A stretch of DNA of 60,528 nucleotides from Pseudomonadota bacterium. GTDB taxonomy: Bacteria; Pseudomonadota; Gammaproteobacteria; Burkholderiales; Rhodocyclaceae. The DNA lies in contig JAGTRX010000002.1 of NCBI GenBank assembly GCA_018262285.1, positions 1 through 60,528 on the forward strand, read 5' to 3'. Positions 9,460 through 38,281 of this stretch are shown piece after piece. Under the pieces are notes generated by a model. That model did no database searches. It was not told where the DNA came from and worked only from the letters and a program-made list of their open reading frames with translations. Every line of letters starts with the position of its first letter. The first letter of the stretch is position 1. A program made the translations under genes and the position numbers.

Positions 9460-9548
9460 TGCTACGTCCTGCGATAACAGTCGGTTCATATTAACATGGC
9501 GTAAGCAACGCGATGCAAGGCTCTGACAAAATGCGGGATAATTCCGGC

Positions 9549-10556
9549 ATGTCTCGATTGCCAAAACTGATCTGCCCTGCCGGAAGCCTGCCTGCCCTGA
9601 AAGCGGCAGTCGACGAAGGCGCGGATGCGGTCTACCTTGGTTTCCGGGATGACACCAACGCCCGCAATTTCCCCGGTCTCAATTTGGGGCAACAGTCGAT
9701 TAGCGAGGGCATTGTCTATGCCCACCGGGCGGGGCGCGAGGTTTTGCTGGCGATCAATACCTTTGCGCAACCGGGGCGGGTTGACGAATGGCGGCGGGCG
9801 GTCGATGCTGCTGCCGGGTTGGGGGCGGACGCCGTTATCCTGGCCGACATCGGGCTGCTGGCCTACGCCTGCAAGCGATACCCTGAGTTGCGCCTGCACC
9901 TTTCCGTGCAGGGATCGGCGACCAGTTATGAGGCCATCAATTTCGCCCAGCGCGAGTTTGGTGTCCGGCGCGCCGTATTGCCGCGCGTGTTGACCTTGGC
10001 GCAGGTCGAGCAGGTGATCAATAACACCACGGTCGAAATCGAAATCTTCGGATTCGGTAGCCTGTGCGTGATGAACGAGGGGCGTTGCTGGCTTTCTTCC
10101 TACGCCACAGGTGAGTCGCCCAATACGGTGGGCGCCTGTTCGCCGGCACGATTCGTAAAATGGGAGAAAGGGCAGGGGATGATGGAAACCCGGCTTAACG
10201 GCATTCTCATCGACCGCTTTCGTGACGACGAACCAGCCGGCTATCCGACGTTGTGCAAAGGTCGCTTCGAGGTCAATGGCAGCACCTACTATGCGCTGGA
10301 AGAGCCGACCAGTTTGAACGTGTTGCCCATGTTGCCGGACATCGCCCGCATCGGCGTGACTGCGATCAAGGTCGAAGGCCGCCAGCGCAGCCCGGCCTAT
10401 GTGCGGCAGGTGACGCGGGTGTTGCGCGCGGCGCTCGACACGCTGCAGCGCGAAGGCGAACGTTATCAGGTGGCGCCGCATTGGCAGAGTGAATTGGCCA
10501 AGGTTTCAGAAGGCAGTCAGGTGACCTTGGGCGCCTATAACCGGCCATGGCGATAG
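9549..10556 (+). CDS. ubiU: Oxygen-independent ubiquinone hydroxylation protein UbiU (U32 family)
   Basis: With UbiV, inserts hydroxyl groups into the ubiquinone ring without O2, using prephenate as oxygen donor in Escherichia coli. 335 residues of the U32 fold. The four iron-sulfur ligands are present: FGSLC and EGRCWLSSY, then NTVGACSPARF and YPTLCKGRF. Other family signatures are LICPAGSLPALKAAVDEGADA, VKVEGRQRSPAYV-like IKVEGRQRSPAYV and the C-terminal LGAYNRPW. Of three in-frame ATGs (9513, 9531, 9549), 9549 gives the compact N-terminus of characterised UbiU. ubiV follows after 17 bases. Confidence 0.95.
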   Translation: MSRLPKLICPAGSLPALKAAVDEGADAVYLGFRDDTNARNFPGLNLGQQSISEGIVYAHRAGREVLLAINTFAQPGRVDEWRRAVDAAAGLGADAVILADIGLLAYACKRYPELRLHLSVQGSATSYEAINFAQREFGVRRAVLPRVLTLAQVEQVINNTTVEIEIFGFGSLCVMNEGRCWLSSYATGESPNTVGACSPARFVKWEKGQGMMETRLNGILIDRFRDDEPAGYPTLCKGRFEVNGSTYYALEEPTSLNVLPMLPDIARIGVTAIKVEGRQRSPAYVRQVTRVLRAALDTLQREGERYQVAPHWQSELAKVSEGSQVTLGAYNRPWR

Positions 10557-10573
10557 ATGGGGAGGGGTGAAGA

Positions 10574-11491
10574 GTGAAGGGTGAGGCTCGTTATCCGCGT
10601 TTGTCGCTCGGGCCGCTGCTATTTTTCTGGCCGAAGGAGCGGGTGTTTGATTTCTACGCCGAAATAGCCACTAATCCGGATATCGATATCGTCTACCTTG
10701 GCGAGGTGGTCTGTTCGCGCCGCCAGCAAATGAAGGCGGTAGACTGGCTTGATCTGGCGTGTCGCTTGAGAGATGCCGGCAAGGAAGTCGTGATTTCGGC
10801 GCAGGCTTTGCTCGAATCGGAAAATGACCTGAAAATCCTGCGTTTGCTGATTGACGGCCTGGCCGACGGCGGCATGATCGAGGCCAATGATCTGGGGGCG
10901 GTTTCGCTTGCCGCCGGGCGGCCGTTTGTCGCCGGGCCGCATCTCAACATCTACAACGAAACGACGCTGGCTACTTTTGCCAGCTACGGCCTCAAGCGCT
11001 GGCTGCCGCCGCTGGAGGCGGGGCGGCGCCTGGTACAAACCCTGCATTCATCACGGCCGCCGGGCGTCGAGACCGAAGTGTTCGTTTTTGGCAAATTGCC
11101 GCTGGCTTTTTCGGCGCGTTGTTTTACAGCAAGGCACTATGGTCTGAACAAGGACGATTGCCAGTTCCGCTGTCTCGAGCACGCGCAAGGGACGACCATG
11201 AAAACGCGGGAAGGGCAGGCATTCCTCACCATCAACGGCATTCAGACCATGTCGGCGCAAACTTTTAACCTGCTGGCCGAAGTCCCGGAATTGTGTGCGC
11301 TGCAAGTCGATGTTCTGCGCATCAGCCCGCAACCAAGCCACATGCAAGAGATCATTGCCGCCTTCGATCAGGCAAGGCAGAGCCAAAATGTCGAATCTCG
11401 GGCAGAATGGGGCGAAGAAGGATTCGCCAACGGGTTTTGGCATGGCGAAGCCGGTGTGATTCAACTCAACCAGATAGTGGAACGCGGATGA
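10574..11491 (+). CDS. ubiV: Oxygen-independent ubiquinone hydroxylation protein UbiV (U32 family)
   Basis: Partner of UbiU in the O2-independent hydroxylase complex. 305 residues with the family opening [13 protein letters not shown] and LGEVVCSRR. Four cysteine ligands are present: C in [10 protein letters not shown] in [10 protein letters not shown] and two in [24 protein letters not shown] is the conserved C-terminal stretch. The start is GTG at 10574, preceded by a strong GGGGAGGGG ribosome site. Its TGA overlaps the ubiT ATG (ATGA), so the three proteins are probably made together. Confidence 0.95.
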
Positions 11492-11949
11492 ACCTGCGCC
11501 CGAATATTCCTGCTTTCAAGCTGCCCGCATTGGTTGCCGTGCTGGGTGCGCGCTTGCCGCAATGGCCGCATAGTCTGGCTTTTGTCGCGGCGCTGAATGT
11601 TGGCGTTCGAATGAAGCTGTTTCCCGAGGATAGCCTGCAAACCCTGGAAAATAGCACCTTTCTGGTTGAGGTTTCAGACACCGGTGGCCGCGCCCAGTTC
11701 AGCTATCGCAACGGGCTGTTTCAGCCACTCTTTGGTAACTGCGGAAGCCATGACCTGGTTTTTCGCGCCAATCTTTCCGCCTTCACGCAATTGCTTTCCC
11801 GCCAGGAAGACCCGGACACACTCTTCTTCAATCGCGCCCTGACCATCGAGGGTGATACCGAACTGGGGCTGACCGTCAAGAACATGCTTGACGCCATCGA
11901 TTGGCCTGCGCTTCCGGTATTGCTGCGGCAGCACTGGCCAATCGGATAG
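11488..11949 (+). CDS. ubiT: SCP2-domain ubiquinone accessory factor UbiT
   Basis: Lipid-binding SCP2 (sterol carrier protein 2) domain protein that replaces UbiJ during anaerobic ubiquinone synthesis. 153 residues: short proline-containing N-terminus ([18 protein letters not shown]), then the SCP2 fold with [40 protein letters not shown] (in two parts: [12 protein letters not shown] and [13 protein letters not shown]) and the conserved [15 protein letters not shown]. It starts inside the ubiV stop. Position and fold together make UbiT the only reasonable call. It converges with the next gene 7 bases away. Confidence 0.92.
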
Positions 11950-23530: not shown

Positions 23531-24166
23531 ATGAAACGAGTGATTAGCGTTGCCGCTTTGGCCTTGCTGGCAACGACCACGCTGGCGGCGGATTGCCCGC
23601 CGGTGGCGGAGTACAGGGTTGGGAACATTTCTTACCGGGCGCGACCGATGCAGCAGTCTCTGGATCACCTGCTGCGTGCGACGCCCTACAAAGGCGTGGT
23701 TGAGGCCAGGGCAGAAGTGGTGGTCAAGGCACGTCGTCTGGCCGGATCGCTTTCCCGTTCGCTCGATGCACTGGCGGTGCAGGCCGGCACCCGCTGGCGG
23801 CAAGAGGGTTGTGTATTGCGCTTTTCTGCCAAGGCCGCCGACGTTGTGGCCAGGCCGCTGGCGGCAGCGCCCAGAGTGACCGAGGTTGTGGCCGAAGCGG
23901 CCAAACCGGCGGCGGCCGTGTGGACGCTCAGAGCCGATGTGCCAATTCATTTGCAATTTGCCGAATGGGCGAGGCGCGCTGGCTGGCATTTTGAATGGAA
24001 GCTGGAAAAGAGCTGGATTGTTCCGGCCACAGCACAATTTTCCGGAACTTTTGATGAAGTCCTGTCGCAGGCTGTGGAAGGACTCTACGCGCAAGGCAAG
24101 CCGGTGCGGCTGATCATTTGGGAAGGCAATCGTTTTGCGGAGATCGTCGATGTCGATGCCAAGTAA
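23531..24166 (+). CDS. TcpQ/PilL-like thin-pilus assembly protein
   Basis: 211 residues with a signal peptide (MKRVISVAALALLATTTLA) and a C-terminal TcpQ/PilL-type domain (about 135-205): WTLRADVPIHLQFAEWARRAGWHFEW (as WTLRADVPIHLQF and WARRAGWHFEW), IVPATAQFSGTFDEVLSQAVEGLYAQG (as FSGTFDEVLSQAVE) and VRLIIWEGNRF. This domain binds secretins in type IVb pilus systems. GAGG lies 9 bases before the ATG. The next gene overlaps by 17 bases. Gene symbol left open because PilL of R64 is larger. Confidence 0.8.
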   Translation: MKRVISVAALALLATTTLAADCPPVAEYRVGNISYRARPMQQSLDHLLRATPYKGVVEARAEVVVKARRLAGSLSRSLDALAVQAGTRWRQEGCVLRFSAKAADVVARPLAAAPRVTEVVAEAAKPAAAVWTLRADVPIHLQFAEWARRAGWHFEWKLEKSWIVPATAQFSGTFDEVLSQAVEGLYAQGKPVRLIIWEGNRFAEIVDVDAK

Positions 24167-25805
24167 AAAACTCATTCTGGTTGGCTTGGCGGCGGTGCTG
24201 CTGGCGGGTTGCGCCACGTTCGAGGAAGTCGGCAAGAAAATCGCCGGTTCGCAAGTCAAGGCTGACGAAGCGCTGGCGCAGCAAAGCCAGATGCGCCGCA
24301 CCGGCGCGGTGGTGCGCATGCCGGGTGCCAAACTGGCGGGTGATGAGGTGATGGTCAAACAGTCCGGCCAATTGCCGCCCCTGTTTTCGCGACCCTTCTC
24401 CTATCTGTCAGCCCACCAGCCGCTTTCAGCCGTATTGGGTGAAATTGGCCGGCGAACCGGCGTCGGCACCGCCATTCAGCCCGCCGAAACCGGAGGCGCC
24501 ACAACAAGCCCGGCTGCGCCTGCAAACGCGAACATGCCCAGTTTTTCGGGCGGACAGGATGCGCCAATTGCGGTCGACTGGAGTGGCGATCTCAAGGGGC
24601 TACTCGATTATCTGGCGACATCGACCAAGATGTTCTGGAAATACGAGGATGGCCGGATTTATTTCTTCAAGACGGAAACCCGCAGCTTTCATGTCTTCCT
24701 GCCTGCCGGCAAGCGCACGATCAAATCGTCGATTTCGCTCTCCGGCAACGCCAGTAGTAGCGGTAGCGGAAGCAGCGGGAGTAGTGGCACGACCAGTGGC
24801 TCTTCCGGGTCTTCGGGCGGTTCAAGTTCAGGCACTGTCGATGTGGCCTCCAACATGGAAATTGATGCCTACGACGCCATTATCAAGTCGGTGCAGACCA
24901 TTGTTTCAGCAGCAGAAGGCGCGCCGGCATCCGGCACGCAAAGCGGCGCCTCTTCGAGCAATGGTGGCGCGGCCAGTTCAAAGAATGTCGTGGCCAACCC
25001 GGCGCTTGGCATCATTACCGTGACGGCTACCCCGGCCATTCTCGACCGGGTGGGCAGCTACGTGCGCAGTATCAACGAGCGCTTTGCACAGAATGTGATG
25101 ATCGGCGTGAAAATTTATAACCTGACGGTCAATAAGGGCGTCAATGCGGGTGCTTCGCTCACCCTGGCTTATCAGGATGTGGCGAAGAAATATGGTGCGG
25201 TGCTGACGGGTGCGCCCAATCTCGCACCACTCAATGGCGGCACGGCCGGGACTATGGTGGTGGATAAACTGGCCGGTAGCAAATTCACGGGTTCGCAGCT
25301 GATTGTGCAGGCGCTGGAACAGATTGGCGACGTGCAGTATGTCACTTCCGGTCAGGTGATCGCTGCCAACGGCCAGCCCAGCCCCTTGCAGGTGGCGACG
25401 GAATACACTTATGTGGCTTCACGCACGAATACGCCGGCTTCGCTCACGAGTCCGGCAGTCTCGGGGGTGACACCGGGATCGCGCACAGTTGGCTTTACCG
25501 CCAATTTTTTGCCGCTGATTTTGGGCGACAATCGCATTATGCTGCAGTACCAGATCAATTTGTCCGCGCTGCTTAGCCTGGAAACCTTCGGAGCCGGAAA
25601 TGATGCAATTCAGATTCCCAAGGTGTCAACGCAAAGTCTGCAGCAGCAGGCCTTTGTCAAAGATGGGCAGTCCATTGTGCTCCTTGGTTTTGAGCAGGAG
25701 CGTGCGACTTCGGACAAGGCCAACGGTCTCACAGGTATCAGCCGCAACGCCGGTTCGGAACGCAACCTGATGGTCATCGTCATGGAGGTCTACAGTGGCA
25801 AATAA
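24150..25805 (+). CDS. pilN: Type IVb pilus secretin PilN, lipoprotein
   Basis: Outer-membrane ring through which the thin pilus leaves the cell. 551 residues: lipobox LAGC (near residue 18), N-domains (PLSAVLGEIGRRTGVGTA, then the DLKGLLDYLATSTKMFWKY domain), a long Ser/Gly-rich loop (about 200-235) and the C-terminal secretin beta domain with VTSGQVIAANGQPSPLQV, IQIPKVSTQSLQQQAFVKDGQSIVLLG and MVIVMEV. It matches the PilN/BfpB type rather than PulD. Start at ATG 24150 with GGAG 8 bases upstream. PilN secretin genes of R64 are likewise followed by pilO, pilP and pilQ-type genes. Confidence 0.88.
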   Translation: MSMPSKKLILVGLAAVLLAGCATFEEVGKKIAGSQVKADEALAQQSQMRRTGAVVRMPGAKLAGDEVMVKQSGQLPPLFSRPFSYLSAHQPLSAVLGEIGRRTGVGTAIQPAETGGATTSPAAPANANMPSFSGGQDAPIAVDWSGDLKGLLDYLATSTKMFWKYEDGRIYFFKTETRSFHVFLPAGKRTIKSSISLSGNASSSGSGSSGSSGTTSGSSGSSGGSSSGTVDVASNMEIDAYDAIIKSVQTIVSAAEGAPASGTQSGASSSNGGAASSKNVVANPALGIITVTATPAILDRVGSYVRSINERFAQNVMIGVKIYNLTVNKGVNAGASLTLAYQDVAKKYGAVLTGAPNLAPLNGGTAGTMVVDKLAGSKFTGSQLIVQALEQIGDVQYVTSGQVIAANGQPSPLQVATEYTYVASRTNTPASLTSPAVSGVTPGSRTVGFTANFLPLILGDNRIMLQYQINLSALLSLETFGAGNDAIQIPKVSTQSLQQQAFVKDGQSIVLLGFEQERATSDKANGLTGISRNAGSERNLMVIVMEVYSGK

Positions 25806-26404: not shown

Positions 26405-27628
26405 ATGCGGATTCTCAATAATTCTTCCATCGTCGTCGGCATCGAGTGGACGCTGCACGAATCGCTGGCGCAGGCCAAGAAAGCAGCGGGCGGCAAGAAG
26501 AAAGTGCTGGTCGCCCGCAAGGTCATTTCGGGCGAATGTGTGCAGGGTATTTGTGCTGCGCCGCCCAAGGCCAAAAAGTTACAGGCCGGTGCGCTGCTGG
26601 CTGCCGCTGTTGCCGATGATGTGTTGATCTATCACAGCCTGGGCGATGGCAACGCCTGGGTCTGTGCCGTGCGCGAAGGCATCCCCTTGCACGGCTTCGA
26701 CGTGGTGACGGACGAGGATAGCGCTCGCACCGTGCTGGCCGAAGTGATGTCCTATGTGCCGACAGCCGACATTTACGGCGATATTTCTGGTGCCAAGGGT
26801 ACGCTCGAAGAGCTTTTTGCCCAGCTTACCCCGCGCCACAAAAAAGCGGCCGCGCTGACTGTGCCGGAAAGTCCGGTGGTTGTCATTTTGTTGATTGTCG
26901 TTCTGCTTCTGCTCGCCGCCATTGCCGTGTTCGGTTTCCTGCTGCTCAAAAAGCCGGGTCAGGCTTCTGGCTTGCCGCTACAGAATGAGGAAGAGTTGCG
27001 CAAGGCGCGCATCGAATTCGAGGCGCGCGTGGCCGAACAGCGGCGGGTGTTCTGGCATGCCCGTATGCCCGGTCAGCAGTTCGTGCTTTGGTACGACCTT
27101 CTGCGGCAGCAGCCGATTTCGTCGGAGGGCTGGAGCATGGGTGCTTTTCGCTGTGATCCCGAACAGTGCACCGTGACCTGGAAACGTGACCCGCGCGCCC
27201 TGTTGTCGTCGGCCGCACAACTGCCGGGCAAGGCGGGTGCGCCGTCCTTCAATCCGGCGCTGAAAGAGACGGCCACTACTTTTATGCCGCAGAAAACGCC
27301 CGTCGTTGAACACAAGCAGGGGCTGCCCGACATCGACAAATTCCTGGTCGATCTGGGCGTGCGTACCACGCCGGTCAAGCTGACCATCAATCCGTCGCAA
27401 AGCCCGGTTGTGGTTCAGCCGCCTGCCGGAGTGCAGGGGCTGGCGCCGGTGACGCTCGGGCGCGAGGGAGCTTGGCGGCTGGAAAGCAACAATCCCCTGC
27501 TGGTGCCGGAATTTCTGGCCAGAATGGAGTTGCCCGGCATCACCGTCAGCAGCATGGACATCAAAAGCCTGAGTCCGGGGCGGCCATACCGGATTGAACT
27601 GGAGGGACGCTACCGTGTCGGAAATTGA
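26405..27628 (+). CDS. pilO: Type IV pilus accessory protein PilO (PAP_PilO type)
   Basis: 407 residues, bitopic: cytoplasmic actin-like or helical N-terminal part (IVVGIEWTLHES, VLVARKVISGE, HGFDVVTDEDSARTVLAEVMSYV in short runs), one membrane helix (about 160-182, VVVILLIVVLLLLAAIAVFGFLLL in part), and a periplasmic C-terminal domain (FEARVAEQRRVFWHARMPGQQ, VLWYDLLRQQPISSEGWSMGAF) ending in a two-stranded motif. This build and its place before the PilQ ATPase match the pilin accessory protein PilO of R64 and relatives. ATG at 26405 has GAGG 7 bases upstream. Confidence 0.75.
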   Translation: MRILNNSSIVVGIEWTLHESLAQAKKAAGGKKKVLVARKVISGECVQGICAAPPKAKKLQAGALLAAAVADDVLIYHSLGDGNAWVCAVREGIPLHGFDVVTDEDSARTVLAEVMSYVPTADIYGDISGAKGTLEELFAQLTPRHKKAAALTVPESPVVVILLIVVLLLLAAIAVFGFLLLKKPGQASGLPLQNEEELRKARIEFEARVAEQRRVFWHARMPGQQFVLWYDLLRQQPISSEGWSMGAFRCDPEQCTVTWKRDPRALLSSAAQLPGKAGAPSFNPALKETATTFMPQKTPVVEHKQGLPDIDKFLVDLGVRTTPVKLTINPSQSPVVVQPPAGVQGLAPVTLGREGAWRLESNNPLLVPEFLARMELPGITVSSMDIKSLSPGRPYRIELEGRYRVGN

Positions 27629-29282
27629 GAGCGCGCCGGTCAAGGCGATCATTGACAGCTATCGCGACATGCCCAAGGGTTATCTGCTGTCGCGTCCGGG
27701 TGGTGAATTCCCGATGAACGACGAATGGCGCGAGCACTTTGCCGTGCTGCGTTCCGGGACGGCGCACTATCTTGTCGTTGCTTCCTCTGCCTTTGGTTCG
27801 GCGCAGATGTTCGAACTGCGCCGCCGCATGAACGCCGCCGGGCTGGAAAAAATACAGATTCTGAACACCTCGCAGGACGTGGTCGAGCTGATGTACGAGG
27901 AAGCCGGTGCCGGCAAGGCAACGCGCGACGGCGAGCGTACCGACGTTGAGTCGCTGGCGGCCGAAATCATCAGCGCCGCTGCCGCCCAGGGTGCTTCCGA
28001 CATCCATATCGAAACGCGCGACCACCGCGCCAATGTCTTTTTTCGCGTCAATGGCACGCGCCGCTTCTATCGCGACCTCACTGCCGGCAACGCCCATTCG
28101 CTCGGCGTCGTCCTCTATTCGGTACATGCCGATGCCGGTTCCAAGGAAGTGTCGTGGGACCCTAACCAGGTCATGGACGGCGCGCTGGAATGGGTGACCA
28201 GCGATGGCGCCACCTACCAGTTGCGCTTCTCCTCCGCCCCCATCTACCCGACCGGCGGTTTCCACATCGTCATCCGCCTGCTGGCGATGGAAGCCAAGGG
28301 CTTGAGTCTGGATGCGCTCGGCTATTCCAAGGAACAGCTCTCGATGCTCGACATCATGAGTTCCGGTTCCTCCGGCATGCTCATCCTGTGCGGCCCGACC
28401 AACTCCGGCAAAAGCACCACTTTGCAAGCCCTGATGGGGCGCATTTACGACCGGCGCGGCGACACCATCAAGATGATCTCGGTCGAAGACCCGGTCGAAT
28501 ACATCATCCCCGGTGCCTGCCAGATTTCGGTGGCGCGCAAACGCAAAACCCTGATCGACCACAATTCCGGCTCCGCCTTTACCACCTTCCTGCGCGGCAC
28601 ACTGCGGCAAGACCCCGATCTGGTCATGGTTGGCGAAATCCGCGACCACGATTCCGCCAGTGTCGTCAAAGACCTGGTGCTGGCGGGCCGCAAGCTGCTG
28701 GCCACCCTGCACACCTATTCGGCGCTGTGGTCTTACGTCCGCCTCAGGGAAATCGGCGTGCCATGGGAAGTGCTGACCATGCCCGGTTTTGTTGCCGGTA
28801 TCGTCTATCAGCGACTCGTGCCGCTGCTTTGTCAGGATTGCGCGGTGCCGCTGGTCGGTGGCGGTTCGGCGCGTATCCCGCGTGAAACGCTCTATCGCGT
28901 CCAGCAGGTTTCCGATCTGGCCACCGACAAGGTCAAGGTCAAAGGCGACGGCTGCCCGAAATGCGCCCATACCGGCTTGATCGGCCGCACGGTGTGTGCC
29001 GAATTTGTCCTGCCCGATCGCGTTTTGCTGCGCCACATGTCGGAAGGCAATTTCCTGGAAGCCGAACGCTACTGGCGCAAATCCGGCGTCGGTGCCATTG
29101 ACGGCGGTGTTACGGCGCTGGCACACGGCATTTACAAAATGCGCCAGGGCTTGGTCAGCCCGATGGATATTGAAGACCAGATCGGCCTCTTGACCTCCGA
29201 CATGGTGCTGGAAGACAGCATTATCTCCAACAGCGAAATCACCGTGCTCTCCGGTACCGGCAAGCTCTCGGGGTACAAGTAG
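27615..29282 (+). CDS. pilQ: Thin-pilus assembly ATPase PilQ (GspE/PilB-like)
   Basis: Secretion ATPase that powers pilin polymerisation. 555 residues: an N-terminal docking domain, then the ATPase core with Walker A G260PTNSGKST268, the Asp-box region TIKMISVEDPVEYIIPGA, Walker B DPDLVMVGEIRDHDSA, the His-box LLATLHTYSAL, and a C-terminal four-cysteine zinc site (LLCQDCAVPL plus DGCPKCAHTGLIGR). Start is GTG 27615 (GGAGG 9 bases upstream), giving MSEIESAPVK; it overlaps pilO by 14 bases and its stop overlaps pilR by 1 base. In R64 the assembly ATPase is PilQ. Confidence 0.88.
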   Translation: MSEIESAPVKAIIDSYRDMPKGYLLSRPGGEFPMNDEWREHFAVLRSGTAHYLVVASSAFGSAQMFELRRRMNAAGLEKIQILNTSQDVVELMYEEAGAGKATRDGERTDVESLAAEIISAAAAQGASDIHIETRDHRANVFFRVNGTRRFYRDLTAGNAHSLGVVLYSVHADAGSKEVSWDPNQVMDGALEWVTSDGATYQLRFSSAPIYPTGGFHIVIRLLAMEAKGLSLDALGYSKEQLSMLDIMSSGSSGMLILCGPTNSGKSTTLQALMGRIYDRRGDTIKMISVEDPVEYIIPGACQISVARKRKTLIDHNSGSAFTTFLRGTLRQDPDLVMVGEIRDHDSASVVKDLVLAGRKLLATLHTYSALWSYVRLREIGVPWEVLTMPGFVAGIVYQRLVPLLCQDCAVPLVGGGSARIPRETLYRVQQVSDLATDKVKVKGDGCPKCAHTGLIGRTVCAEFVLPDRVLLRHMSEGNFLEAERYWRKSGVGAIDGGVTALAHGIYKMRQGLVSPMDIEDQIGLLTSDMVLEDSIISNSEITVLSGTGKLSGYK

Positions 29283-30388: not shown

Positions 30389-30931
30389 ATGCAAGCAAGC
30401 ATCAAGAAACAAAATGGTATGACCCTCACCGAATCCCTGCTGGTTCTGGCAGTCGGCGCGCTGATTGCTGTGCTGGCCTATGGCGCTTATCGTATGGCGA
30501 CCAGCGACGTCAAGGTGCAGTCGCAGGTGCAAGGCATCACGCAATTGGTTGGCAAGATCAAGCAGGTTTTTGGAACTGGTGCCACGTACGGAACGGCAGA
30601 TATGGTCAAAAGCATCGTCGATGCCAAGATTGTCCCCGCAGACATCAAGATTGGTGGCACTGCAGCTGCCCCGACCCTAAGTAATGCCTGGGGCGGTGGT
30701 GTCACAATTGTCGGCGCTGGCGCTGCTTTCACGATTACTATCGTTGGCGTTCCGTCTGAAGGTTGCATTCAATTTCTTTCTGGCATTTCCAGCGCGGCTA
30801 ATTCGATGACAATGGGTGGAACGTCGGTAAAGGCGACAGGTGCTAACTTCGATCCTGCGGCTGCTGCGACACAATGCGCTGCAAGTACAGGTTCTGGTGC
30901 CACTTCGACGGCTGTTTTGACCGCCCAATAA
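30389..30931 (+). CDS. pilS: Major type IVb pilin PilS
   Basis: 180-residue prepilin. The prepilin peptidase site is G10|M11-TLTE15, so mature residue 1 is a (methylatable) Met, with Glu at position 5 and a 20-residue hydrophobic helix (SLLVLAVGALIAVLAYGAYR). The globular part carries NAWGGGVTIVGAG and a Cys pair (VPSEGCIQF and ATQCAAS) that closes the C-terminal disulfide loop as in type IVb pilins. A strong AAGGAG ribosome site precedes the ATG. Prepilin peptidase is not in the window and must be elsewhere. Confidence 0.9.
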   Translation: MQASIKKQNGMTLTESLLVLAVGALIAVLAYGAYRMATSDVKVQSQVQGITQLVGKIKQVFGTGATYGTADMVKSIVDAKIVPADIKIGGTAAAPTLSNAWGGGVTIVGAGAAFTITIVGVPSEGCIQFLSGISSAANSMTMGGTSVKATGANFDPAAAATQCAASTGSGATSTAVLTAQ

Positions 30932-30946: not shown

Positions 30947-31954
30947 ATGCCTGACCGCAAGATGACGCCTCCTGCCGATGTTAATGGGTTGTTCAACGGC
31001 CTGGATAAATCGAGCGTGTTTGGCAATATCAGCGACATACACCTGTGCGATGCGCGGCTGGGGGAATCCCTGATTTTCCCCGGTCCGCGCCGGGTGTCTG
31101 CCCACCTGATGCCGGAAATGGAATCCCTGTTGTCGCGCTGCCGCGCCTGCGGCAAGGGCGACTTCATGGTGAGCATGAACGGCGAATTTTTCCGTGTCCG
31201 CCACGAAACCCATACCGTGGATGGCACCTGGTACCGGCTGCGGCGTATGCCGCCCGAACCGCCCGAACTGGACAAACTTCCCAGCAAGTTGCCGGCACCG
31301 CTGGTGCGCTTGCTGATGTCGCCCCGCTTGAGTCACGGAGGGCTGGTGTATGTGGTCGGCGCGCCGGGGCAGGGCAAGACGACGACCGCTTCCGCCACCC
31401 TCGTCTCCCGCTTGAAGGAATACGGCGGCTTTGCGCTGACGGTGGAAGACCCGCCGGAAATGCCCTTGAACGGCTGGCACAACAACGGTTACTGCTCACA
31501 GACCTGGGTGGCCGGCGATGATTCGACCGACTGGGCGGAATCCTTCCGTGGCGTGCTCAGGAGCCAGCCGGTCGGCACGCACACCCTGCTTTACGTCGGC
31601 GAAGTACGCGATGCCGAATCGGCGCACGCCATGCTGCGCGCGGCGGCCAACGGTTTTCTGGTCATCGCCACCGGCTTTGGCACCGACATCACTTCCGGGC
31701 TGGAAGCGCTCATCCATCTGGCTGGCGCGCAAGCGAGCTGGCTGGCCTCGCTCTCCGGCCTGCTGCGTCTGGTCATCCACCAGCGCATCGTCAATGAGCA
31801 GATGGTGGCCACCTCGCTCGCCTCGCTCAATGCCAAAACTTCAGTGGCAGCCAAACTGCGCGCCGGTTCGCTCAGTCATTTGCTGTCCGATATCCAGTTC
31901 CAGGCCAATCAGGCCATGCTGGGCGTTGATGTGTTCGAGGAACAGGCGGGCTGA
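30947..31954 (+). CDS. Secretion-type ATPase with altered motifs (second pilus ATPase)
   Basis: 335 residues of the PilT/VirB11-like ATPase superfamily. An N-terminal small domain (ISDIHLCDARLGESLIF) is followed by Walker A G138APGQGKTT146, Walker B LLYVGEVRDAESAHAML and a zinc-less core. Unlike PilT, the His-box (usually TxHTxSA) is replaced by IATGFGTDITSGLEAL and Walker A has PGQ. The N-terminal domain is close to PilT size. It lies just after the pilin gene, so it may be a second motor or a regulatory ATPase. Name left open. Confidence 0.72.
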   Translation: MPDRKMTPPADVNGLFNGLDKSSVFGNISDIHLCDARLGESLIFPGPRRVSAHLMPEMESLLSRCRACGKGDFMVSMNGEFFRVRHETHTVDGTWYRLRRMPPEPPELDKLPSKLPAPLVRLLMSPRLSHGGLVYVVGAPGQGKTTTASATLVSRLKEYGGFALTVEDPPEMPLNGWHNNGYCSQTWVAGDDSTDWAESFRGVLRSQPVGTHTLLYVGEVRDAESAHAMLRAAANGFLVIATGFGTDITSGLEALIHLAGAQASWLASLSGLLRLVIHQRIVNEQMVATSLASLNAKTSVAAKLRAGSLSHLLSDIQFQANQAMLGVDVFEEQAG

Positions 31955-31956
31955 TC

Positions 31957-32496
31957 ATGTGGCTGCTGATGGTCATCGCCGGTTTTCTTTCCATTTTTGT
32001 GCTGACCAGTGTTTTCAGCGATTATTCAAATAAACAGATTGATAGCAGCGCCACGCAGATGGCTTCGGCGCCGACCTCGCCGACGCTGGGCAACTACAAC
32101 GCCTTTGCCTATGGCGCTGTGCTCTATATGCGCGATAGCGACAGCGTCCCGCTTGCCGGCATCCCCATTTACTGGTCGGCGATCAAGAGCGGGGTGGAGA
32201 GCAAGGGTTTTGCCTCGCCCTTCCTGCAGGCCGATATACCGGCCAACTGGAAGATCGTTCCCAATGGCCAGAAGTTGTTTTCTGACGGTGACCAGCGCGG
32301 ATTTTATTTGTGCGCCGATATGCCGGACGCAGCTGTTGCCGTGCTTGCACGCAAGGTGCCGCCCGAGTTGGCGCTCAAAATGAACAATCTTGAGAAAACC
32401 AGCGGTAGCGAAACGATGCAACTGGCCGTATTCGACAGCAAATTCGCAACGCCTGCGGAAGTAGATACTGGAGCGACGGAATGCCTGAAAAACTGA
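31957..32496 (+). CDS. PilM-like membrane-anchored pilus protein
   Basis: 179 residues: one N-terminal membrane helix (MWLLMVIAGFLSIFVLTSV) and a soluble domain facing the periplasm (YNAFAYGAVLYMRDSDS, AGIPIYWSAIKSGVESK, RGFYLCADMPDAAVAVLARKVPPE in short runs), ending CLKN. It resembles PilM of the R64 thin-pilus locus in length and layout. Two cysteines (YLCAD and ECLKN) are spaced about 55 residues apart. It starts 2 bases after the ATPase gene and overlaps pilV by 16 bases. Confidence 0.6.
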   Translation: MWLLMVIAGFLSIFVLTSVFSDYSNKQIDSSATQMASAPTSPTLGNYNAFAYGAVLYMRDSDSVPLAGIPIYWSAIKSGVESKGFASPFLQADIPANWKIVPNGQKLFSDGDQRGFYLCADMPDAAVAVLARKVPPELALKMNNLEKTSGSETMQLAVFDSKFATPAEVDTGATECLKN

Positions 32497-33146
32497 AAAC
32501 CCAGCGGGGCATGACCATTGTCGAGCTGATTCTGGCGCTCGGCGTGGCGCTGATGACCCTCATCCTTCTGGTCAATATGCACAAGAACGCCAGCGATGAC
32601 CTGAAAGCGAAGCGCAGCGCCGATTACCTGCTGACCTTCACGCAAGCGGCCAGCCGCTACGCTGCGGCCAATCGTGATGGACTGGTCAAGGCCATGCGCA
32701 ACGATTCTGCCAGCCAGACCGATTTTTGCACCAGCACGGTCAACCTCGCGCTTTCCGGCAAAACCAGTTATACCTGCGTGACCGATCTGGCCAGACTGAT
32801 CAGCAAGAACGCCCTGCCTGCCTCATTCGCCGGCAGCACGAATGCCTACGGTCAGACCTTGTCCGCCATCTTCAAACTTGCCAATCCGGCCAGTGGCAGT
32901 GAGCTTGCCAACGGCGACAATCAGGATGTCGAGATTCTGGTCGTGGCCAACAATGGTGTTCCGATCACGCAAACCAGTGAACTGGGTCTGGCGGTGGAAC
33001 TGCTCGGCGGTGTTGGCGGTTTTGTGCCACCAGCCGGAACGAGCGGACTATGCCCGGCCGGCAAGGAAGTATGCGGGCCGGGTTGGGCAAGCACCCTGGC
33101 GGATTTTGGCGCCTGTCGCAAGGGAGTGGATGCGGGATGCAACTGA
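32481..33146 (+). CDS. PilV-like type IVb minor pilin, short form
   Basis: 221 residues with the prepilin site G10|M11-TIVE15 and a hydrophobic helix (LILALGVALMTLILLVNM). The following helix (SADYLLTFTQAASRYAAANRDGLVKAM in short runs) and domain match the constant part of PilV, the tip protein of the R64 thin pilus, which is usually larger (about 360 residues) and ends in a shufflon segment. Here the protein stops after a Cys-rich tail (TSGLCPAGKEVCGPGW, FGACRKGVDAGCN). The ribosome site is GACGG 6 bases before the ATG. It overlaps the next gene by 10 bases. Confidence 0.72.
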   Translation: MPEKLKTQRGMTIVELILALGVALMTLILLVNMHKNASDDLKAKRSADYLLTFTQAASRYAAANRDGLVKAMRNDSASQTDFCTSTVNLALSGKTSYTCVTDLARLISKNALPASFAGSTNAYGQTLSAIFKLANPASGSELANGDNQDVEILVVANNGVPITQTSELGLAVELLGGVGGFVPPAGTSGLCPAGKEVCGPGWASTLADFGACRKGVDAGCN

Positions 33147-33730
33147 AACTTTTCCTCATGACTTTGATGGCTGCCCTGACGATGCAGGTGCAGGCACAAA
33201 CCCGCGTGTTACCCGGGAGCTCGGCAGGGTATGTTTATTCGCCGGGAACAAGCACGGCCTCATCGTTGAATAACGGCGAGTATGGCTGCTACAAGTTCAA
33301 GATGGATCCATCTCAGATTGCGTTGATGGGCTCGCATGGACTGTTTAATCTGCCGCCCTATATTGCCGGCGCCACGGGCGATGCAAAATATACGAATATG
33401 GAATTGCTGTCGTTGGGTGTGGTCTCGGGAACACCACCAAAATTTTCTGGAATCCTGCGTCTGGCCGGCTGTTACGTCAAAATTGCGACCGTAATCAGGC
33501 CGCACGAAAATTCCTGTTCGACGATTGATACGCACATTGCGCGCTGCGACAGCACATGGTCGGGCGAGCCCAATTATGGCAAAGGCCTCTCGGCCTGCGT
33601 GTATACCCATGCCTCGGGCGTACTGACCAAAATGTATTATGTGGAAGTTGTCGATCTGCCGGTGAGCGGGGTGGTCAAGTCAGGTAGTTGCGCACCGTCT
33701 TCGGGTATGTGGGATAACACCTCATATTGA
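33137..33730 (+). CDS. Secreted pilus-locus protein A, candidate tip protein
   Basis: 197 residues with a signal peptide (MQLKLFLMTLMAALTMQVQA) and no prepilin site. The mature N-terminus carries VLPGSSAGYVYSPG, shared with the next protein (VVMPGSSAAYIFSPA); a GEYGCYKFKMD motif follows, echoed there as EDGYGCYKVL. Six to seven cysteines suggest disulfides. No catalytic motif seen. It overlaps pilV by 10 bases and has a weak GGGAG ribosome site. Not recognised as a named family. Confidence 0.62.
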   Translation: MQLKLFLMTLMAALTMQVQAQTRVLPGSSAGYVYSPGTSTASSLNNGEYGCYKFKMDPSQIALMGSHGLFNLPPYIAGATGDAKYTNMELLSLGVVSGTPPKFSGILRLAGCYVKIATVIRPHENSCSTIDTHIARCDSTWSGEPNYGKGLSACVYTHASGVLTKMYYVEVVDLPVSGVVKSGSCAPSSGMWDNTSY

Positions 33731-33820
33731 AGCGGGACGGGATCAAGTGATAATGCATCGCCACAGTTGTTGGCTGAAACTGAAAACCTCAAGAAGGAAA
33801 GCGGTTCTAAGGGTAAAACG

Positions 33821-34867
33821 ATGAAAAACCAAGCCATCCCGTATGTTCTGGTCTTGCTGTTGGGCGCCTCGCCTGCAGTCGCTCTGGCAAAAACCGTGGT
33901 CATGCCCGGCAGTTCGGCGGCCTATATTTTCAGCCCCGCAGCCAAGGGTTCAGGTGGTGCCATTGCGCCGGATACGGATGCACCCGTGTTGACCCTGCAA
34001 GACCCGGCCAACATCGCCGGAGTCAGCGCCAATATCAATGCCGCCATTAATGAGGCTGGCAAGGTGTATTTCGTCGTTCAACTCAAGAGCGTGGCTACTG
34101 CCCCGACATTGGCGCAGGTCGTGGCGGGTAAGAACAGCGGTGGAACGGCAGCGTTGTCTGCCGGCAGCAATTTGAGCATGACCAAAGATACACAAGCCAT
34201 CTTCAACATGACCGGACTGACGGAACTGACCGAATACAAGGTCTATTTCGTCGCCTGCGACAATGTCGCACCCACCGCAAATTGCACGGCCACACCATCT
34301 TCCAAGGAATTCAAGACGCTGGACGCGACGCCGCCGACGACAAGCGAGGTTGCGGTGACGAGTACTTTGGCAACTGGTGCCAGTTTTACCGCCAAAATTA
34401 CAGAGGATGGCTATGGCTGCTATAAGGTATTAGCTTCGGCAACCCCGCCGACTGTGGATGATGCTTTCAAGTCGTCATGTACCGGCCAAACGATGACGGC
34501 CAACACAATTAAAACCTTTGGCAGCATTGGCGGGCTGACGGCTGGTACAACCTATTACATCTATTTTCTCGCGCGCGATAACGCTGCGCCAAACAACAAT
34601 TGGCAAACTGGATTCCAACAAGTGAAGAGCTTTGCTGCGACAGATGTTTGTTCTAGTCAGGCGGTGGATGTTACAAAAGATACTTGCTGCTATGCCAAAA
34701 ATAGCGACCATGCCACTTACGGGCGTGCATCTTTAATATTTGGAACTTATTCAACCACCGGATCGGGAACCTCTTTGGGCACGTTAGGAACTACCATGAC
34801 CTATTTGAAGAAAACCAATTTGTATTCCCAGACCAACTGGTGGGATAAGGTTACGACTTGTCCCTAA
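33821..34867 (+). CDS. Secreted pilus-locus protein B with tandem Fn3-like repeats, candidate tip protein
   Basis: 348 residues with a signal peptide (YVLVLLLGASPAVALA) and AAGGG 7 bases before the ATG. After the shared VVMPGSSAAYIFSPA motif come two tandem beta repeats of about 90-100 residues; each starts with DT/DATPP or TDAPVLT-like entry strands and ends with LTxLTxYKVYFVACDN or LTAGTTYYIYFLARDN. This is the layout of fibronectin-III-like modules. A distinct C-terminal region (about 290-348) contains several Cys (CSSQAVDVTKDTCCYAK, VTTCP). Likely an exported binding protein; partner unknown. A 90-base gap separates it from protein A. Confidence 0.65.
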   Translation: MKNQAIPYVLVLLLGASPAVALAKTVVMPGSSAAYIFSPAAKGSGGAIAPDTDAPVLTLQDPANIAGVSANINAAINEAGKVYFVVQLKSVATAPTLAQVVAGKNSGGTAALSAGSNLSMTKDTQAIFNMTGLTELTEYKVYFVACDNVAPTANCTATPSSKEFKTLDATPPTTSEVAVTSTLATGASFTAKITEDGYGCYKVLASATPPTVDDAFKSSCTGQTMTANTIKTFGSIGGLTAGTTYYIYFLARDNAAPNNNWQTGFQQVKSFAATDVCSSQAVDVTKDTCCYAKNSDHATYGRASLIFGTYSTTGSGTSLGTLGTTMTYLKKTNLYSQTNWWDKVTTCP

Positions 34868-34893
34868 GAAAATAGGAGTCAGACCATTATTTT

Positions 34894-36378
34894 ATGGTTC
34901 TGATAACGAGATCGACAAAGAGCAATGAAAACTGTGAGATCGCCTTGGTAAATTGTGCGAACCCTGCTTCGTCGGATAACACCCCGCACCCTGAATTCCT
35001 TAACCATCTGTTCGATGGCGTGATTCTTGTGCGCGGCGGGCGCGTGGCCTGGGTGAATGAGGCGGCAAAATCCCTCCTTGGTGTTACCGACAACATTGAT
35101 GGGGCTGCGCTGCGCCTCTTGTCGCCTGAAGCGGACGAGGTCTTTTCGTCGCGCGAGCAGGGGCGTTACCACTTCTGGCGCCAGCGCCTCGATCCGGCCA
35201 CCAATATCTCGCGGCGTGATGTCTTTATTGCCGATACGCGCTGGATCAATGAGAGCAATGGCCAGTTGGATGGCAAACTGATCTTTCGCGATGCGACGGA
35301 TGTGGTCATCCTGGAAAAGAAGCTGATCAACACCTCATACAAGGATGATCGCAGCGGCTTGCTGACAGCAGTCGGCTTTGCCGAACTGGCGGGGACGCGC
35401 TTTTCACGTCGGCGCAAAGAGGATGGCCTGACGGTGATGATTGCCATGTCGGTTCCAGAGCTGGCGAATTACGAAATGCAACCGGCTGTTCAGGCCGGAA
35501 TTCTGAAGGATATTGCCATCCGCATCCGCGAGAGCTTGCGCGGTAACGATCTGGCGGCGTATCTGGGTAACAACCGGTTTTCTGTTTTGCTCAACAATAT
35601 TCCCCGTCTGGATCAGGCGCTGGGCGTGGCCAAACGTATTGGCGCGCTGGTTTCGGCACCTTTCGAGTGCAAGGGCGAGACGGTGCGTTTGCAGGCCATG
35701 ATCGGTCTGGCCATCCTGGGGGCGGACGGCGATTCGACCGATCCGCTGATGCAGGCGGCGCAACGCGCCAGCGACGAGGGCAGGCCGGCAAACGGCAAAT
35801 CCTACGCCATCACCTTTGCCAACAAGGAAATTCAGAAGACAGCGGAGGAGGAAGCGGCGCGGGCGGCGAAAATTTTGCAGGAAATCCTGCAGGGAAAGAC
35901 CGGCTTCGAGGTTTCCTATTTCCGCAACGCGGAAGGGCGGGCTTGTCTCATTCGGCCATGCCTGCCGGACTTCAGCGAGGAGGATGTCTGGGAAGCTTAC
36001 GATCAGGAGGGTATGGCGGCCGATCTGGTGCGTTCGGCCATCGATCGTTCGGCTTCGATCGAATGCGACTTTTTTGTCATCAGTTATCCGGCCAAATTCA
36101 GAAAAATCGGCAATAATGCGATGGCGTTATTGGCGGCCGAGCGTAATATGCCAATTTCCCGGTTTTATAGCTGCCATCAGTCGCTGCCGGTGGCGGCGGC
36201 GCCCGGTCACTCGGTAGGTTTGGCGGCGGCCTGGGATGGTGGTATTTCGCTGTCGCAACTCAAGAGTTTTGGTGTTGATCTGGTGTTGGTGCCGGCGGCG
36301 AGCGACAATCCGATTCTGGGCGCCGAGGTGGCGGTGGCCAGGCAGTTTTTCAAGGTTTTCAGCGGGGAGGCAAATTGA
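34894..36378 (+). CDS. PAS protein with degenerate GGDEF domain, inside pilus operon
   Basis: 494 residues: a PAS domain (about 30-140, FDGVILVRGGRVAWVNEAAKSLLG, LIFRDATDVVILEKK), a GGDEF-like domain (about 150-310) with G225NNRF in place of GGDEF, and a C-terminal region of unknown fold (about 330-494) in which GVDLVLVPAASDNPILGAEVAVARQFFKVF could be a remnant of an EAL-type or other alpha/beta domain. Catalytic loss is certain for diguanylate cyclase activity. It may bind c-di-GMP or act as scaffold. The ATG at 34894 lacks a well-spaced ribosome site (AGGAG is 15 bases upstream); TTG at 34945 is an alternative. Confidence 0.75.
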   Translation: MVLITRSTKSNENCEIALVNCANPASSDNTPHPEFLNHLFDGVILVRGGRVAWVNEAAKSLLGVTDNIDGAALRLLSPEADEVFSSREQGRYHFWRQRLDPATNISRRDVFIADTRWINESNGQLDGKLIFRDATDVVILEKKLINTSYKDDRSGLLTAVGFAELAGTRFSRRRKEDGLTVMIAMSVPELANYEMQPAVQAGILKDIAIRIRESLRGNDLAAYLGNNRFSVLLNNIPRLDQALGVAKRIGALVSAPFECKGETVRLQAMIGLAILGADGDSTDPLMQAAQRASDEGRPANGKSYAITFANKEIQKTAEEEAARAAKILQEILQGKTGFEVSYFRNAEGRACLIRPCLPDFSEEDVWEAYDQEGMAADLVRSAIDRSASIECDFFVISYPAKFRKIGNNAMALLAAERNMPISRFYSCHQSLPVAAAPGHSVGLAAAWDGGISLSQLKSFGVDLVLVPAASDNPILGAEVAVARQFFKVFSGEAN

Positions 36379-37454
36379 ACTCACTACTCAGCCATATCGT
36401 CGAGCTTTCTGCGTCTGACACTTCGTTTTCCGATGTTCAGGTCGAGCAGGGGCAAACCGTAATGTGCCGGCGGCCAGATGGCTGGACGGAATCCGGCTAC
36501 GGTGTTGCCGAGGCGGAGGACATCATTCCGGTGATGAACGCGCTCGACCGCGAATGGAAACTCCTGCTGAAGCAGGGCGGGGCCATCGACCGCGCCATCG
36601 ACCTGAGCCATGTGCGACTGCGCTGCAATGCCTACACGACCAACGGCGGAACACGCATTGCCATCACCATCCGCAAATTACCGCTTGAGGCCTTGTCGAT
36701 GGAGCAGTTGCGCTTGCCGGCGCAGGTGGCTCAATTTGCGGCCATGCCCAAGGGTTTACTGCTCCTTTCCGGCGCCACCGGTTCGGGCAAGACGACAACC
36801 ATCGCCGCCATTATCAAGCGTATCAACGAAACCCGCGCCGCGCATATCGTCACCATTGAGGAGCCGATCGAATACATTTTTAGCCGCAACAAGTCCATCA
36901 TCACCCAGCGCGAGATTGGCGCACCGGGTAGCGGCGCCGATTCGGTGTCTTTTTCGGCCGGTTTGCGGGAGGCGTTGCGCCAGCGTCCGGATGTGATCGT
37001 GGTGGGCGAGATCCGCGATGCCGATACGGCGGATACGGTGTTACGTGCGGCCGAATCCGGCCATTACATCATGGCGACAGTACATGCCCGCAATGCGGTG
37101 GGTGCCATCCAGAAAATGCTTTCATTCTTCCCCAACGATACGGCAACGCGGGCGGCAACACTGTCGAGTTCGTTGTGCGGTGTCATTTCGCAAACGCTGG
37201 TGCCTTCCGTGGATAACAAGCGTTTTGTGCCGGCGTTGGAAATCATCATCAATGCCGATTCGTCGACGACGGCCATGATTGCCAATGTGGATAAGCATCG
37301 GCAACTGGAAGAAAAACTCAAGTCCGGCCAGATGCCGGGCTGTGTCGGTGTCAATACGGTGCTTAAAAAACTGGTCACCGAGGGCGTGATTTCGCGCAAG
37401 GCAGCCATGGCCGCTTCCTATGCCCCTGAAGAACTCGATATCCTGAACAAGTAA
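36375..37454 (+). CDS. PilT-type retraction ATPase (PilT/PilU family)
   Basis: 359 residues of the twitching-motility ATPase family: Walker A G133ATGSGKTTT, Asp-box IVTIEEPIEYIF, Walker B PDVIVVGEIRDADTADTVLRAAE and the His-box MATVHARNAVGAI, all intact, so an active motor is expected. Start is TTG at 36375 with GGGGAGG just upstream, overlapping the stop of the PAS gene (TTGA). Thin pili of the R64 type are not known to need a retraction ATPase, so this gene is noteworthy in the operon; bundle-forming type IVb systems (BfpF) do use one. Confidence 0.88.
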   Translation: MNSLLSHIVELSASDTSFSDVQVEQGQTVMCRRPDGWTESGYGVAEAEDIIPVMNALDREWKLLLKQGGAIDRAIDLSHVRLRCNAYTTNGGTRIAITIRKLPLEALSMEQLRLPAQVAQFAAMPKGLLLLSGATGSGKTTTIAAIIKRINETRAAHIVTIEEPIEYIFSRNKSIITQREIGAPGSGADSVSFSAGLREALRQRPDVIVVGEIRDADTADTVLRAAESGHYIMATVHARNAVGAIQKMLSFFPNDTATRAATLSSSLCGVISQTLVPSVDNKRFVPALEIIINADSSTTAMIANVDKHRQLEEKLKSGQMPGCVGVNTVLKKLVTEGVISRKAAMAASYAPEELDILNK

Positions 37455-37843
37455 TGACAGCAAATCACTCAGAAAACGATCAGACTCTAGCGGCAAAAAA
37501 CGAAGGGTGGGATAATCCGCAGATGAACGATCCACAACCCGTTTCTCCCCGCCGTCGCATGCAGGAATTGCTGGATATCCCCGATAACCAGCGTACCGAG
37601 GCGGAGTGGGATGAGCTCAACGAGCTAGAAATCCAGTTGGCGCCGGTTAACCGCGAAGGTGCGCCCGAGCCGCGCGGCCAGCGCAGTGGTCAGGCGCCGC
37701 GTCCCAGGCAGCAGCAGCGTCCTCCCCCACAGCAGGTTTCGCATAACAACGCACAGCCGGGCGGCGGCGCATCCCAGCAGCCAAAACGCACGGTTAAGCG
37801 CTTTCGGCGGCGGCCGCCCAAAGCCGCTAGCCAGCCAAGCTGA
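37454..37843 (+). CDS. Small proline/glutamine/arginine-rich basic protein
   Basis: 129 residues, not recognised. The ATG at 37454 shares its A with the PilT-type gene TAA; an alternative ATG is at 37523. The first half is acidic/neutral (RMQELLDIPDNQRTEAEWDELNELE as a short helix), the second half is disordered and basic (RPRQQQRPPPQQ, KRTVKRFRRRPPKAA). Basic tails of this kind often bind RNA. It sits 7 bases upstream of a ProQ/FinO-domain gene, so an RNA-linked role is an inference. Confidence 0.6.
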   Translation: MTANHSENDQTLAAKNEGWDNPQMNDPQPVSPRRRMQELLDIPDNQRTEAEWDELNELEIQLAPVNREGAPEPRGQRSGQAPRPRQQQRPPPQQVSHNNAQPGGGASQQPKRTVKRFRRRPPKAASQPS

Positions 37844-37849: not shown

Positions 37850-38281
37850 GTGACCGAACCCAAAGTTTTACCTGTGCCAGATGCCATTCTGGCTTCGCGC
37901 GCCATGATCAAGGGCTGGCTGGAAAATCACGCCGTTTTCCGCGATTGTCTGCCGCTGGCCATTGGTATCGACAAGCAATTGCTGGCACTTTATCCGCAGA
38001 CGGAACGCAAAATCCTGCGCATGGCGCTGCGTTATCACACCAGCTCAATGCGCTATTTGAAGGCGATGGAGAAGGCAACGGTTCGCCACAATCTTGATGG
38101 CAGCGCAGCTGATGAAGTGCCGGATTCCCACCGTGAACACGCTGCCGAGCAGATGCGCGAACGCCTGCGCAAGGAGGCCGAGCGTCGCAAAAGCCAGCGT
38201 CAGGCCGAAGCGGCTGCAGCAGAAGAGCGCCAGCGCGCCGAGAAACTGGAGCAGTTGGCCGCCAAGTTTTCGCGGCGCTGA
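37850..38281 (+). CDS. ProQ/FinO-domain RNA chaperone
   Basis: 143 residues: an N-terminal ProQ/FinO domain (about 15-95) with AIGIDKQLLALYP and the helix ERKILRMALRYHTSSMRYLKAM, and a highly charged C-terminal tail (EAERRKSQRQAEAAAAEER...) that lacks the Tudor-like domain of Escherichia coli ProQ. Members bind small RNAs and mRNA 3' ends. GTG start at 37850. It is the last gene before the terminator. Confidence 0.85.
   Translation: MTEPKVLPVPDAILASRAMIKGWLENHAVFRDCLPLAIGIDKQLLALYPQTERKILRMALRYHTSSMRYLKAMEKATVRHNLDGSAADEVPDSHREHAAEQMRERLRKEAERRKSQRQAEAAAAEERQRAEKLEQLAAKFSRR

What the first reader, a model, noticed from the sequence alone, without database searches (positions are those of the whole stretch)
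33137..34867. Two new secreted proteins that may be a separately encoded tip of a thin pilus
Seen: both follow pilV, have Sec signal peptides and not prepilin sites, and share PGSSAxYxxSP right after cleavage and a GYGCYK-like motif further on; the second adds two Fn3-like repeats. Known: in R64 the tip protein PilV carries a long variable part switched by a shufflon. Here PilV is short (221 residues), and no recombinase or inverted repeat is present. Inferred: the adhesive part has moved to separate exported proteins.
Basis: partly seen in the sequence, partly recalled or inferred. Interest (0 to 1): 0.7.

Follow-up and report, generated by a model that had tools for sequence, protein, structure and literature searches.

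The report
Pilus-linked exported proteins sharing N-terminal tag
Next to a thin type IVb pilus with an unusually short minor pilin, some bacteria encode otherwise different exported proteins that all begin with the same short tag, which probably plugs them into the pilus for display or release.

Summary
P1 (33137-33730) and P2 (33821-34867) follow a short pilV in an R64-like type IVb pilus locus. Just after a Sec-type signal peptide both carry a ~16-residue tag, about V..PGSxA[GA]Y[VLI][YF]xP. The second shared motif (GYGCYK) looks accidental.

I found five more loci with a short PilV. Tagged proteins directly follow pilV in 6 of 6 short-PilV loci and in 0 of 14 related long-PilV loci. A matrix built from relatives only ranks P1 and P2 first and second in the window, 27.3 and 26.6 bits; next 9.7. 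A tag profile found the sixth locus before its pilus genes were seen. Noviherbaspirillum galbum has five more tagged genes away from its pilus locus. Payloads differ: Fn3-like, Lcl_C-like, glycine-rich, unknown.

Best reading: the tag is a pilus docking/secretion signal, analogous to that of TcpF and CofJ, with exchangeable payloads. Binding to PilV, tip position and secretion are inferred; the lectin-like domain that binds such signals elsewhere is absent from this PilV. The six loci are one clade, hence one evolutionary association.

The parts
24135..25805 (+). PilN-type secretin of the type IVb pilus
   Evidence: TIGR02520 E 8e-67, 226 bits, below its cut-off of 288
27594..29282 (+). PilQ-type assembly ATPase
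   Evidence: GspE/PilB-family matches below equivalog cut-offs; 51-84% identical to PilQ of the five other short-PilV loci
30389..30931 (+). PilS major pilin
   Evidence: PF08805 E 4e-18 and N_methyl
30947..31954 (+). second ATPase of the locus (ATP2), used to find related loci
   Evidence: T2SSE PF00437 E 5e-16; 51-75% to the other short-PilV loci
31957..32496 (+). small membrane-anchored protein between ATP2 and pilV
   Evidence: no meaningful Pfam match; 26-27% relatives in L047 and L185
32481..33146 (+). short PilV minor pilin, 221 aa, pilin domain plus a C..CGxGW tail; proposed docking partner
   Evidence: PF04917 Shufflon_N E 8e-4, below cut-off; alignment of five short PilVs; AF2 model mean pLDDT 66, best match the TCP pilus chain 8uhf_B, Z 5.3
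33137..33730 (+). P1, exported tagged protein, payload unknown
33197..33244 (+). tag of P1, QTRVLPGSSAGYVYSP, after a putative 20-residue signal peptide
   Evidence: 27.3 bits with a relatives-only matrix
33821..34867 (+). P2, exported tagged protein with two Fn3-like repeats
33890..33937 (+). tag of P2, KTVVMPGSSAAYIFSP, after a putative 23-residue signal peptide
   Evidence: 26.6 bits with a relatives-only matrix
34013..34624 (+). two Fn3-like repeats of P2 (residues about 65-171 and 167-268)
   Evidence: 35% and 43% matches to the repeat of L047a
34649..34867 (+). C-terminal cysteine-containing region of P2, similar by eye to the C-terminus of L185a (GRAS..F, LGTLGTT, CP end)
   Evidence: sequences; inspection only
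36375..37454 (+). PilT-like ATPase, possible retraction motor
   Evidence: T2SSE PF00437 E 3e-47; relative after the tagged gene in L048

Best explanation
P1 and P2 are cargo or tip proteins of a type IVb pilus. Sec takes them to the periplasm; signal-peptide cleavage exposes an aromatic N-terminal tag; the tag docks on the pilus, most likely on the short minor pilin PilV at the tip; pilus growth through the secretin then displays the protein on the pilus or releases it outside. The tag is the constant part and the payload is exchangeable, so one pilus can carry several different proteins without a DNA-inverting shufflon. Shown: the conserved tag, its place after the signal peptide, its linkage to short-PilV loci, and the diversity of payloads. 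Inferred: docking on PilV, tip location, secretion, adhesion.
For: Tag right after a signal peptide in proteins directly behind short pilV in 6 of 6 loci (gap from -9 to about +26 nt) and in 0 of 14 long-PilV loci. Relatives-only matrix: P1 27.3, P2 26.6, next 9.7 bits; in about 2.9 million translated positions of the loci the best non-training site is 13.6. A tag profile found G527, then a sixth short-PilV locus was seen beside the hits. No tag core in the other 398 genomes of the order sample. Aromatic at the core position in 16 of 16, G or A before it in 15 of 16, second aromatic two residues on in 15 of 16. TcpF and CofJ bind minor pilins through an N-terminal segment with a critical aromatic, and the CofJ-type motif has small residues before it (PMC9565799, abstract and passages). 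Secretin, assembly ATPase and PilT-like ATPase are in the locus.
Against: No binding, localisation or secretion data. In TcpB and CofB the signal binds the C-terminal lectin-like domain, for which this PilV has no room. Five of 16 tagged proteins are unlinked to the pilus locus. The six loci are one clade, so the tag/short-PilV link is one association, not several independent ones. L050a's signal peptide failed my simple test (10 of 11 pilus-linked tagged proteins passed).
Confidence: 0.62

Rival explanations
1. The tagged proteins are permanent structural tip subunits, working like PilY1 of type IVa pili: PilV and a tagged protein form a priming complex needed for assembly, rather than a shipped cargo.
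For: Tight coupling to pilV (overlap or short gaps); PilY1 and minor pilins prime type IVa pili (abstract of PMC7541494 in the listing).
Against: Payloads change completely between loci while the machinery is conserved; N. galbum has five extra copies elsewhere. No shared payload that could be an assembly factor.
Confidence: 0.15
2. The tag is recognised by something other than PilV (a surface anchor, another pilus protein or another export system) and its genes sit by the pilus only because they act with it.
For: Five N. galbum tagged genes lie apart from the pilus; PilV lacks the domain that binds signals in TcpB and CofB.
Against: In the genomes searched the tag occurs only with short-PilV loci, and pilus-linked copies follow pilV directly in 6 of 6 loci.
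Confidence: 0.18
3. The tag is only inherited similarity: all tagged proteins descend from one ancestral secreted protein whose N-terminus changes slowly, without a docking role.
For: One clade of loci; P2/L047a/L185a and the four Lcl_C-like proteins are homologous among themselves.
Against: P1, L047b, L048a, the Fn3 group and the Lcl_C group show no payload similarity to one another at E 1 or better; retention of just ~16 residues across them suggests selection on the tag.
Confidence: 0.04
4. The shared N-terminus of P1 and P2 is chance.
For: The other shared motif, GYGCYK, does look accidental.
Against: Relatives-only matrix and discovery of G527.
Confidence: 0.01

Closest known systems
TcpF (V. 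cholerae TCP) and CofJ (ETEC CFA/III), soluble proteins carried by type IVb pili through an N-terminal secretion signal, T4bP-SS (PMC9565799; abstract and passages seen)
   Same: Encoded in a type IVb pilus operon, exported by signal peptide, N-terminal segment with a key aromatic; CofJ-type signals have small residues before it.
   Different: Motif differs; here one tag is on several unrelated payloads and, in one genome, on six proteins, five unlinked; the minor pilin is short and lacks the lectin-like domain used by TcpB and CofB.
PilV of R64/TP114-type thin pili with a shufflon (PMC9045228; abstract and passages seen)
   Same: Same kind of pilus locus; variable part is presented by the minor pilin end of the system; 14 related loci here have long PilV.
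   Different: TP114 PilV has a constant part of 345 aa and a variable end of 69-113 aa within one protein switched by recombination; here PilV is 221 aa, no shufflon-like repeats, and the variable parts are separate exported proteins.
PilY1/PilC of type IVa pili (abstracts in listing)
   Same: Separately encoded protein at the tip working with minor pilins.
   Different: Type IVa system and a large conserved protein (recalled); P1 and P2 match no Pfam family at E 1.

Membership tests
Type IVb pilus secreted proteins (TcpF/CofJ type) | Encoded in a type IVb pilus operon | tested here: met
   true of 11 of 16 tagged proteins, the other 5 are unlinked
Type IVb pilus secreted proteins (TcpF/CofJ type) | Sec-type signal peptide | tested here: met
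   Simple script: 10 of 11 pilus-linked tagged proteins pass, L050a does not; SignalP not available
Type IVb pilus secreted proteins (TcpF/CofJ type) | Mature N-terminal segment with a conserved aromatic | tested here: met
   16 of 16; the motif itself differs from those printed for TcpF, CofJ and Citrobacter
Type IVb pilus secreted proteins (TcpF/CofJ type) | Partner minor pilin with C-terminal lectin-like domain that binds the signal | tested here: not met
   PilV is 221 aa, pilin domain and short tail only
Type IVb pilus secreted proteins (TcpF/CofJ type) | Binding to the minor pilin and pilus-dependent secretion | not testable with these tools
R64-type PilV with shufflon | Long PilV with variable C-terminus in one protein | tested here: not met
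   221 aa against 455-554 from the prepilin site in 14 related loci
R64-type PilV with shufflon | Inverted recombination-site repeats | tested here: not met
   No multi-copy inverted repeats in 31900-37500
R64-type PilV with shufflon | Shufflase (rci) gene | tested here: inconclusive
   None among 8 flanking window proteins scanned; whole window not scanned
PilY1/PilC tip adhesins | Recognisable PilY1-type domains in P1 or P2 | tested here: not met
   No Pfam family at E 1 or better

The most novel reading that the evidence does not exclude
A plug-in tip system: a minimal type IVb minor pilin is a general socket, and any Sec-exported protein with a ~16-residue aromatic tag is mounted on or secreted by the pilus, including genes far from the pilus locus. 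N. galbum, with six tagged genes, would hold a repertoire of alternative tips, doing with separate proteins what shufflons do by DNA inversion.
Probability: 0.45. Interest if true: 0.82.

Novelty: new variant of a known kind. Interest (0 to 1): 0.72.

Why it matters
In the paper that defines the type IVb pilus secretion signal, each pilus recognises its own secreted protein, with no cross-binding between the TcpF and CofJ partners (PMC9565799, passages). Here one tag sits on at least four kinds of payload and, in one genome, on six proteins, five of them unlinked. If right, a short sequence can be used to find pilus cargo outside pilus operons, pili could vary what they carry without DNA inversion, and it becomes testable whether a minor pilin without the lectin-like domain can still receive such a signal.

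Tried and rejected
P1 in 150 relatives: of the matches I aligned (8) most are one HG.LPPYI segment that I read as QueA (recalled) and the rest look like chance. The G001 PilV match has no pilus context and looks like chance. P1 and PilV found nothing on plasmids; P2 found five records, only its repeat region in large DUF4347 proteins. Homology of the P1 payload to L047b/L185b is unsettled: MAFFT 29% for P1 and L047b, tag included; hhalign probability 1.6%, BLAST E 0.008 over 50 residues. GYGCYK as a shared motif: rejected. P1 model, pLDDT 31: not used. PilV against the PDB: type IV pilins and pseudopilins first, then weak rows; an unlisted family is not excluded. P2 in solved structures: none. 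C-terminus of L185a on plasmids: none.

Tag hits that were not tags: G729, G741 and G722 (E about 7e-5) are TonB-like proteins (recalled name) with the match inside the protein and no pil genes in the 20, 20 and 6 kb fetched, so E-values near 1e-4 need context. The 24 weak rows (15 rows, 14 genomes; 2; 7) were read; none shows the aromatic tag core.

Dropped before counts: one search kept 80 of 102 relatives. Of L065-L126, only L069 and L074 showed a type IV pilin by my pattern, L082 one false match; the others were not counted. L062 (no PilV seen), L063 and L069 (PilV cut by a contig end) were left out. L054 appears to be the record of L038 and is counted once. L057, L058 and L061 are near copies in the PilQ tree, so the 14 long loci are not 14 independent cases. 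L051's tree row probably is not the locus's own PilQ (placed elsewhere in the locus, very long branch).

Full report
What is there. The window holds a type IVb (R64-like) pilus locus from about 22.8 to 37.5 kb: a lytic transglycosylase (SLT domain), a TcpQ-domain protein, the PilN-type secretin, PilP- and PilO-like proteins (by position), the PilQ-type ATPase, a PilR/GspF-like protein, PilS, a second ATPase (ATP2), a small membrane protein, a short PilV, P1, P2, a PAS/GGDEF protein and a PilT-like ATPase. Ordinary genes flank it: a LON-domain protein before, ProQ, DUF493, an aminotransferase and a DacC-type carboxypeptidase after. The genome is a draft of 229 contigs, 93.7% complete, 5.2% contaminated.

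P1 and P2 each begin with a Sec-type signal peptide and share a tag right after it. They resemble each other only there: P1 against its own genome found P2 over P1 residues 6-41, E 0.03. The second shared motif, GYGCYK, lies in an Fn3-like repeat in P2 (homologues: GTGYYQL, GVGYYLV, GIGYYLV) and not in one in P1, so I treat it as coincidence, although the DNA matches at 14 of 15 nt.

Relatives. Direct searches with P1, P2 and PilV gave nothing useful. PilQ at E 1e-60 or better was found in 2 of 399 genomes of the order: the own one and G138. An ATP2 alignment against the collection of 84,980 species genomes found 102 relatives, 80 kept. Four are close: L047 (Burkholderiales MAG, ATP2 73%), L048 (Noviherbaspirillum galbum, 58%), L049 (Comamonas composti, 51%), L050 (Ventosimonas gracilis, 52%). 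Their PilV is 224-233 residues from the prepilin site, and one or two proteins with the tag directly follow.

Test against chance. A loose pattern fitted to these proteins matches 7 times in loci L033-L126, always right after a signal-peptide-like stretch downstream of a short PilV. The fairer test is a matrix from the 7 relatives only: in the six frames of the window it ranks P1 (27.3 bits) and P2 (26.6) first and second, next 9.7; in about 2.9 million translated positions of the loci the best non-training site is 13.6.

Finding a new case. The window and four relatives' genomes were searched with a tag alignment: besides the nine known proteins, N. galbum showed a cluster of five more on another contig, the weakest at E 0.66. 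The fetched 20 kb around it and 17 kb beside it hold no relative of the window's pilus proteins other than the tag itself. A profile of 14 tags was then run on 399 genomes of the order (only the window's own genome below E 0.002), 120 relatives of N. galbum, 115 of V. gracilis and 149 of C. composti; the sets overlap. One new genome with real hits came up, G527 (E 2.3e-6 and 1.4e-4). Its DNA shows a sixth short-PilV locus (PilQ 84%, ATP2 75%, PilV 42% identical) with the two tagged genes directly after pilV. All 24 weak rows were read and lack the tag core; three rows are TonB-like false positives.

Counts. Tagged proteins: 16 in 6 genomes (window 2, L047 2, L048 1, the separate N. galbum cluster 5, L049 2, L050 2, L185 2). 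Short-PilV loci with tagged proteins directly after pilV: 6 of 6. Long-PilV loci (455-554 residues from the prepilin site; L035, L051-L061, L064, L074) with a tag: 0 of 14. My simple signal-peptide test passes 10 of the 11 pilus-linked tagged proteins; L050a fails it. The six short loci form one branch of an unrooted PilQ tree, support 100/99 (19 rows, L054 had no PilQ), so this is one evolutionary association without known direction, and several long loci are near copies.

Payloads. P2, L047a and L185a share Fn3-like repeats, two, one and three in number by inspection and BLAST. L049a, L049b, L050a and L050b show Lcl_C matches below the cut-off (E 2e-5 to 0.04) and resemble one another. L048a and the five N. 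galbum cluster proteins are glycine-rich; 3 of the 5 match Gly_rich_2 below its cut-off. L047b and L185b look alike. P1 stands alone or is a distant relative of these two (unsettled). The tag stays while the rest changes.

Mechanism. In TcpF and CofJ an N-terminal segment with a critical aromatic hooks onto the minor pilin trimer and is defined as the type IVb pilus secretion signal; the CofJ-family motif has small residues before the aromatic (PMC9565799, abstract and passages). The tag here has the same position and character: aromatic in 16 of 16, G or A before it in 15 of 16. I therefore propose docking on PilV, then carriage through the secretin by pilus growth. The main difficulty: TcpB and CofB bind the signal with a C-terminal lectin-like domain, and this PilV has only a pilin domain and a short tail. 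Its model (mean pLDDT 66) best matches the TCP pilus chain 8uhf_B, Z 5.3, rmsd 3.6, 138 aligned. Docking could use the tail (C..CG..W, invariant in the five aligned short PilVs) or another protein.

Novelty. A search for the term T4bP-SS returned one paper; searches on PilV with shufflon and minor pilin, TcpF with substrates, and Noviherbaspirillum with type IV pilus (no paper) showed no description of this tag in their listings. That covers only the held open-access library and listings, not full readings. I file it as a new variant of the pilus secretion-signal kind and not as a member of the TcpF/CofJ family, because the partner's binding domain was tested and not met.

Noticed in passing
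L147 (G482:C29:160000-179999), 5778-11877 minus strand: Cluster of five tagged glycine-rich proteins in N. galbum with no pilus genes nearby; each ends in a similar QFEG-type C-terminus.
   Followed up: partly
L057, L058, L061, L060, L074: Two or three long pilV-like genes in tandem after ATP2, perhaps alternative tips without a shufflon.
   Followed up: no
window 34894-36378: PAS/GGDEF protein with an apparently degenerate GGDEF motif, kept behind the tagged genes in L047 and L185 (55-57% identical).
   Followed up: no
window 37850-38281: ProQ/FinO-family RNA chaperone directly after the pilus locus.
   Followed up: no
L065-L126: Most of these ATP2 relatives, largely alphaproteobacterial, showed no type IV pilin near the ATPase by my pattern; what system they belong to is unclear.
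   Followed up: no
window 34649-34867 and L185 5218-5400: P2 and L185a share a C-terminal cysteine-containing region after the repeats; it recalls substrate-binding ends of extracellular depolymerases (recalled, no search supports it; one search found nothing).
   Followed up: partly
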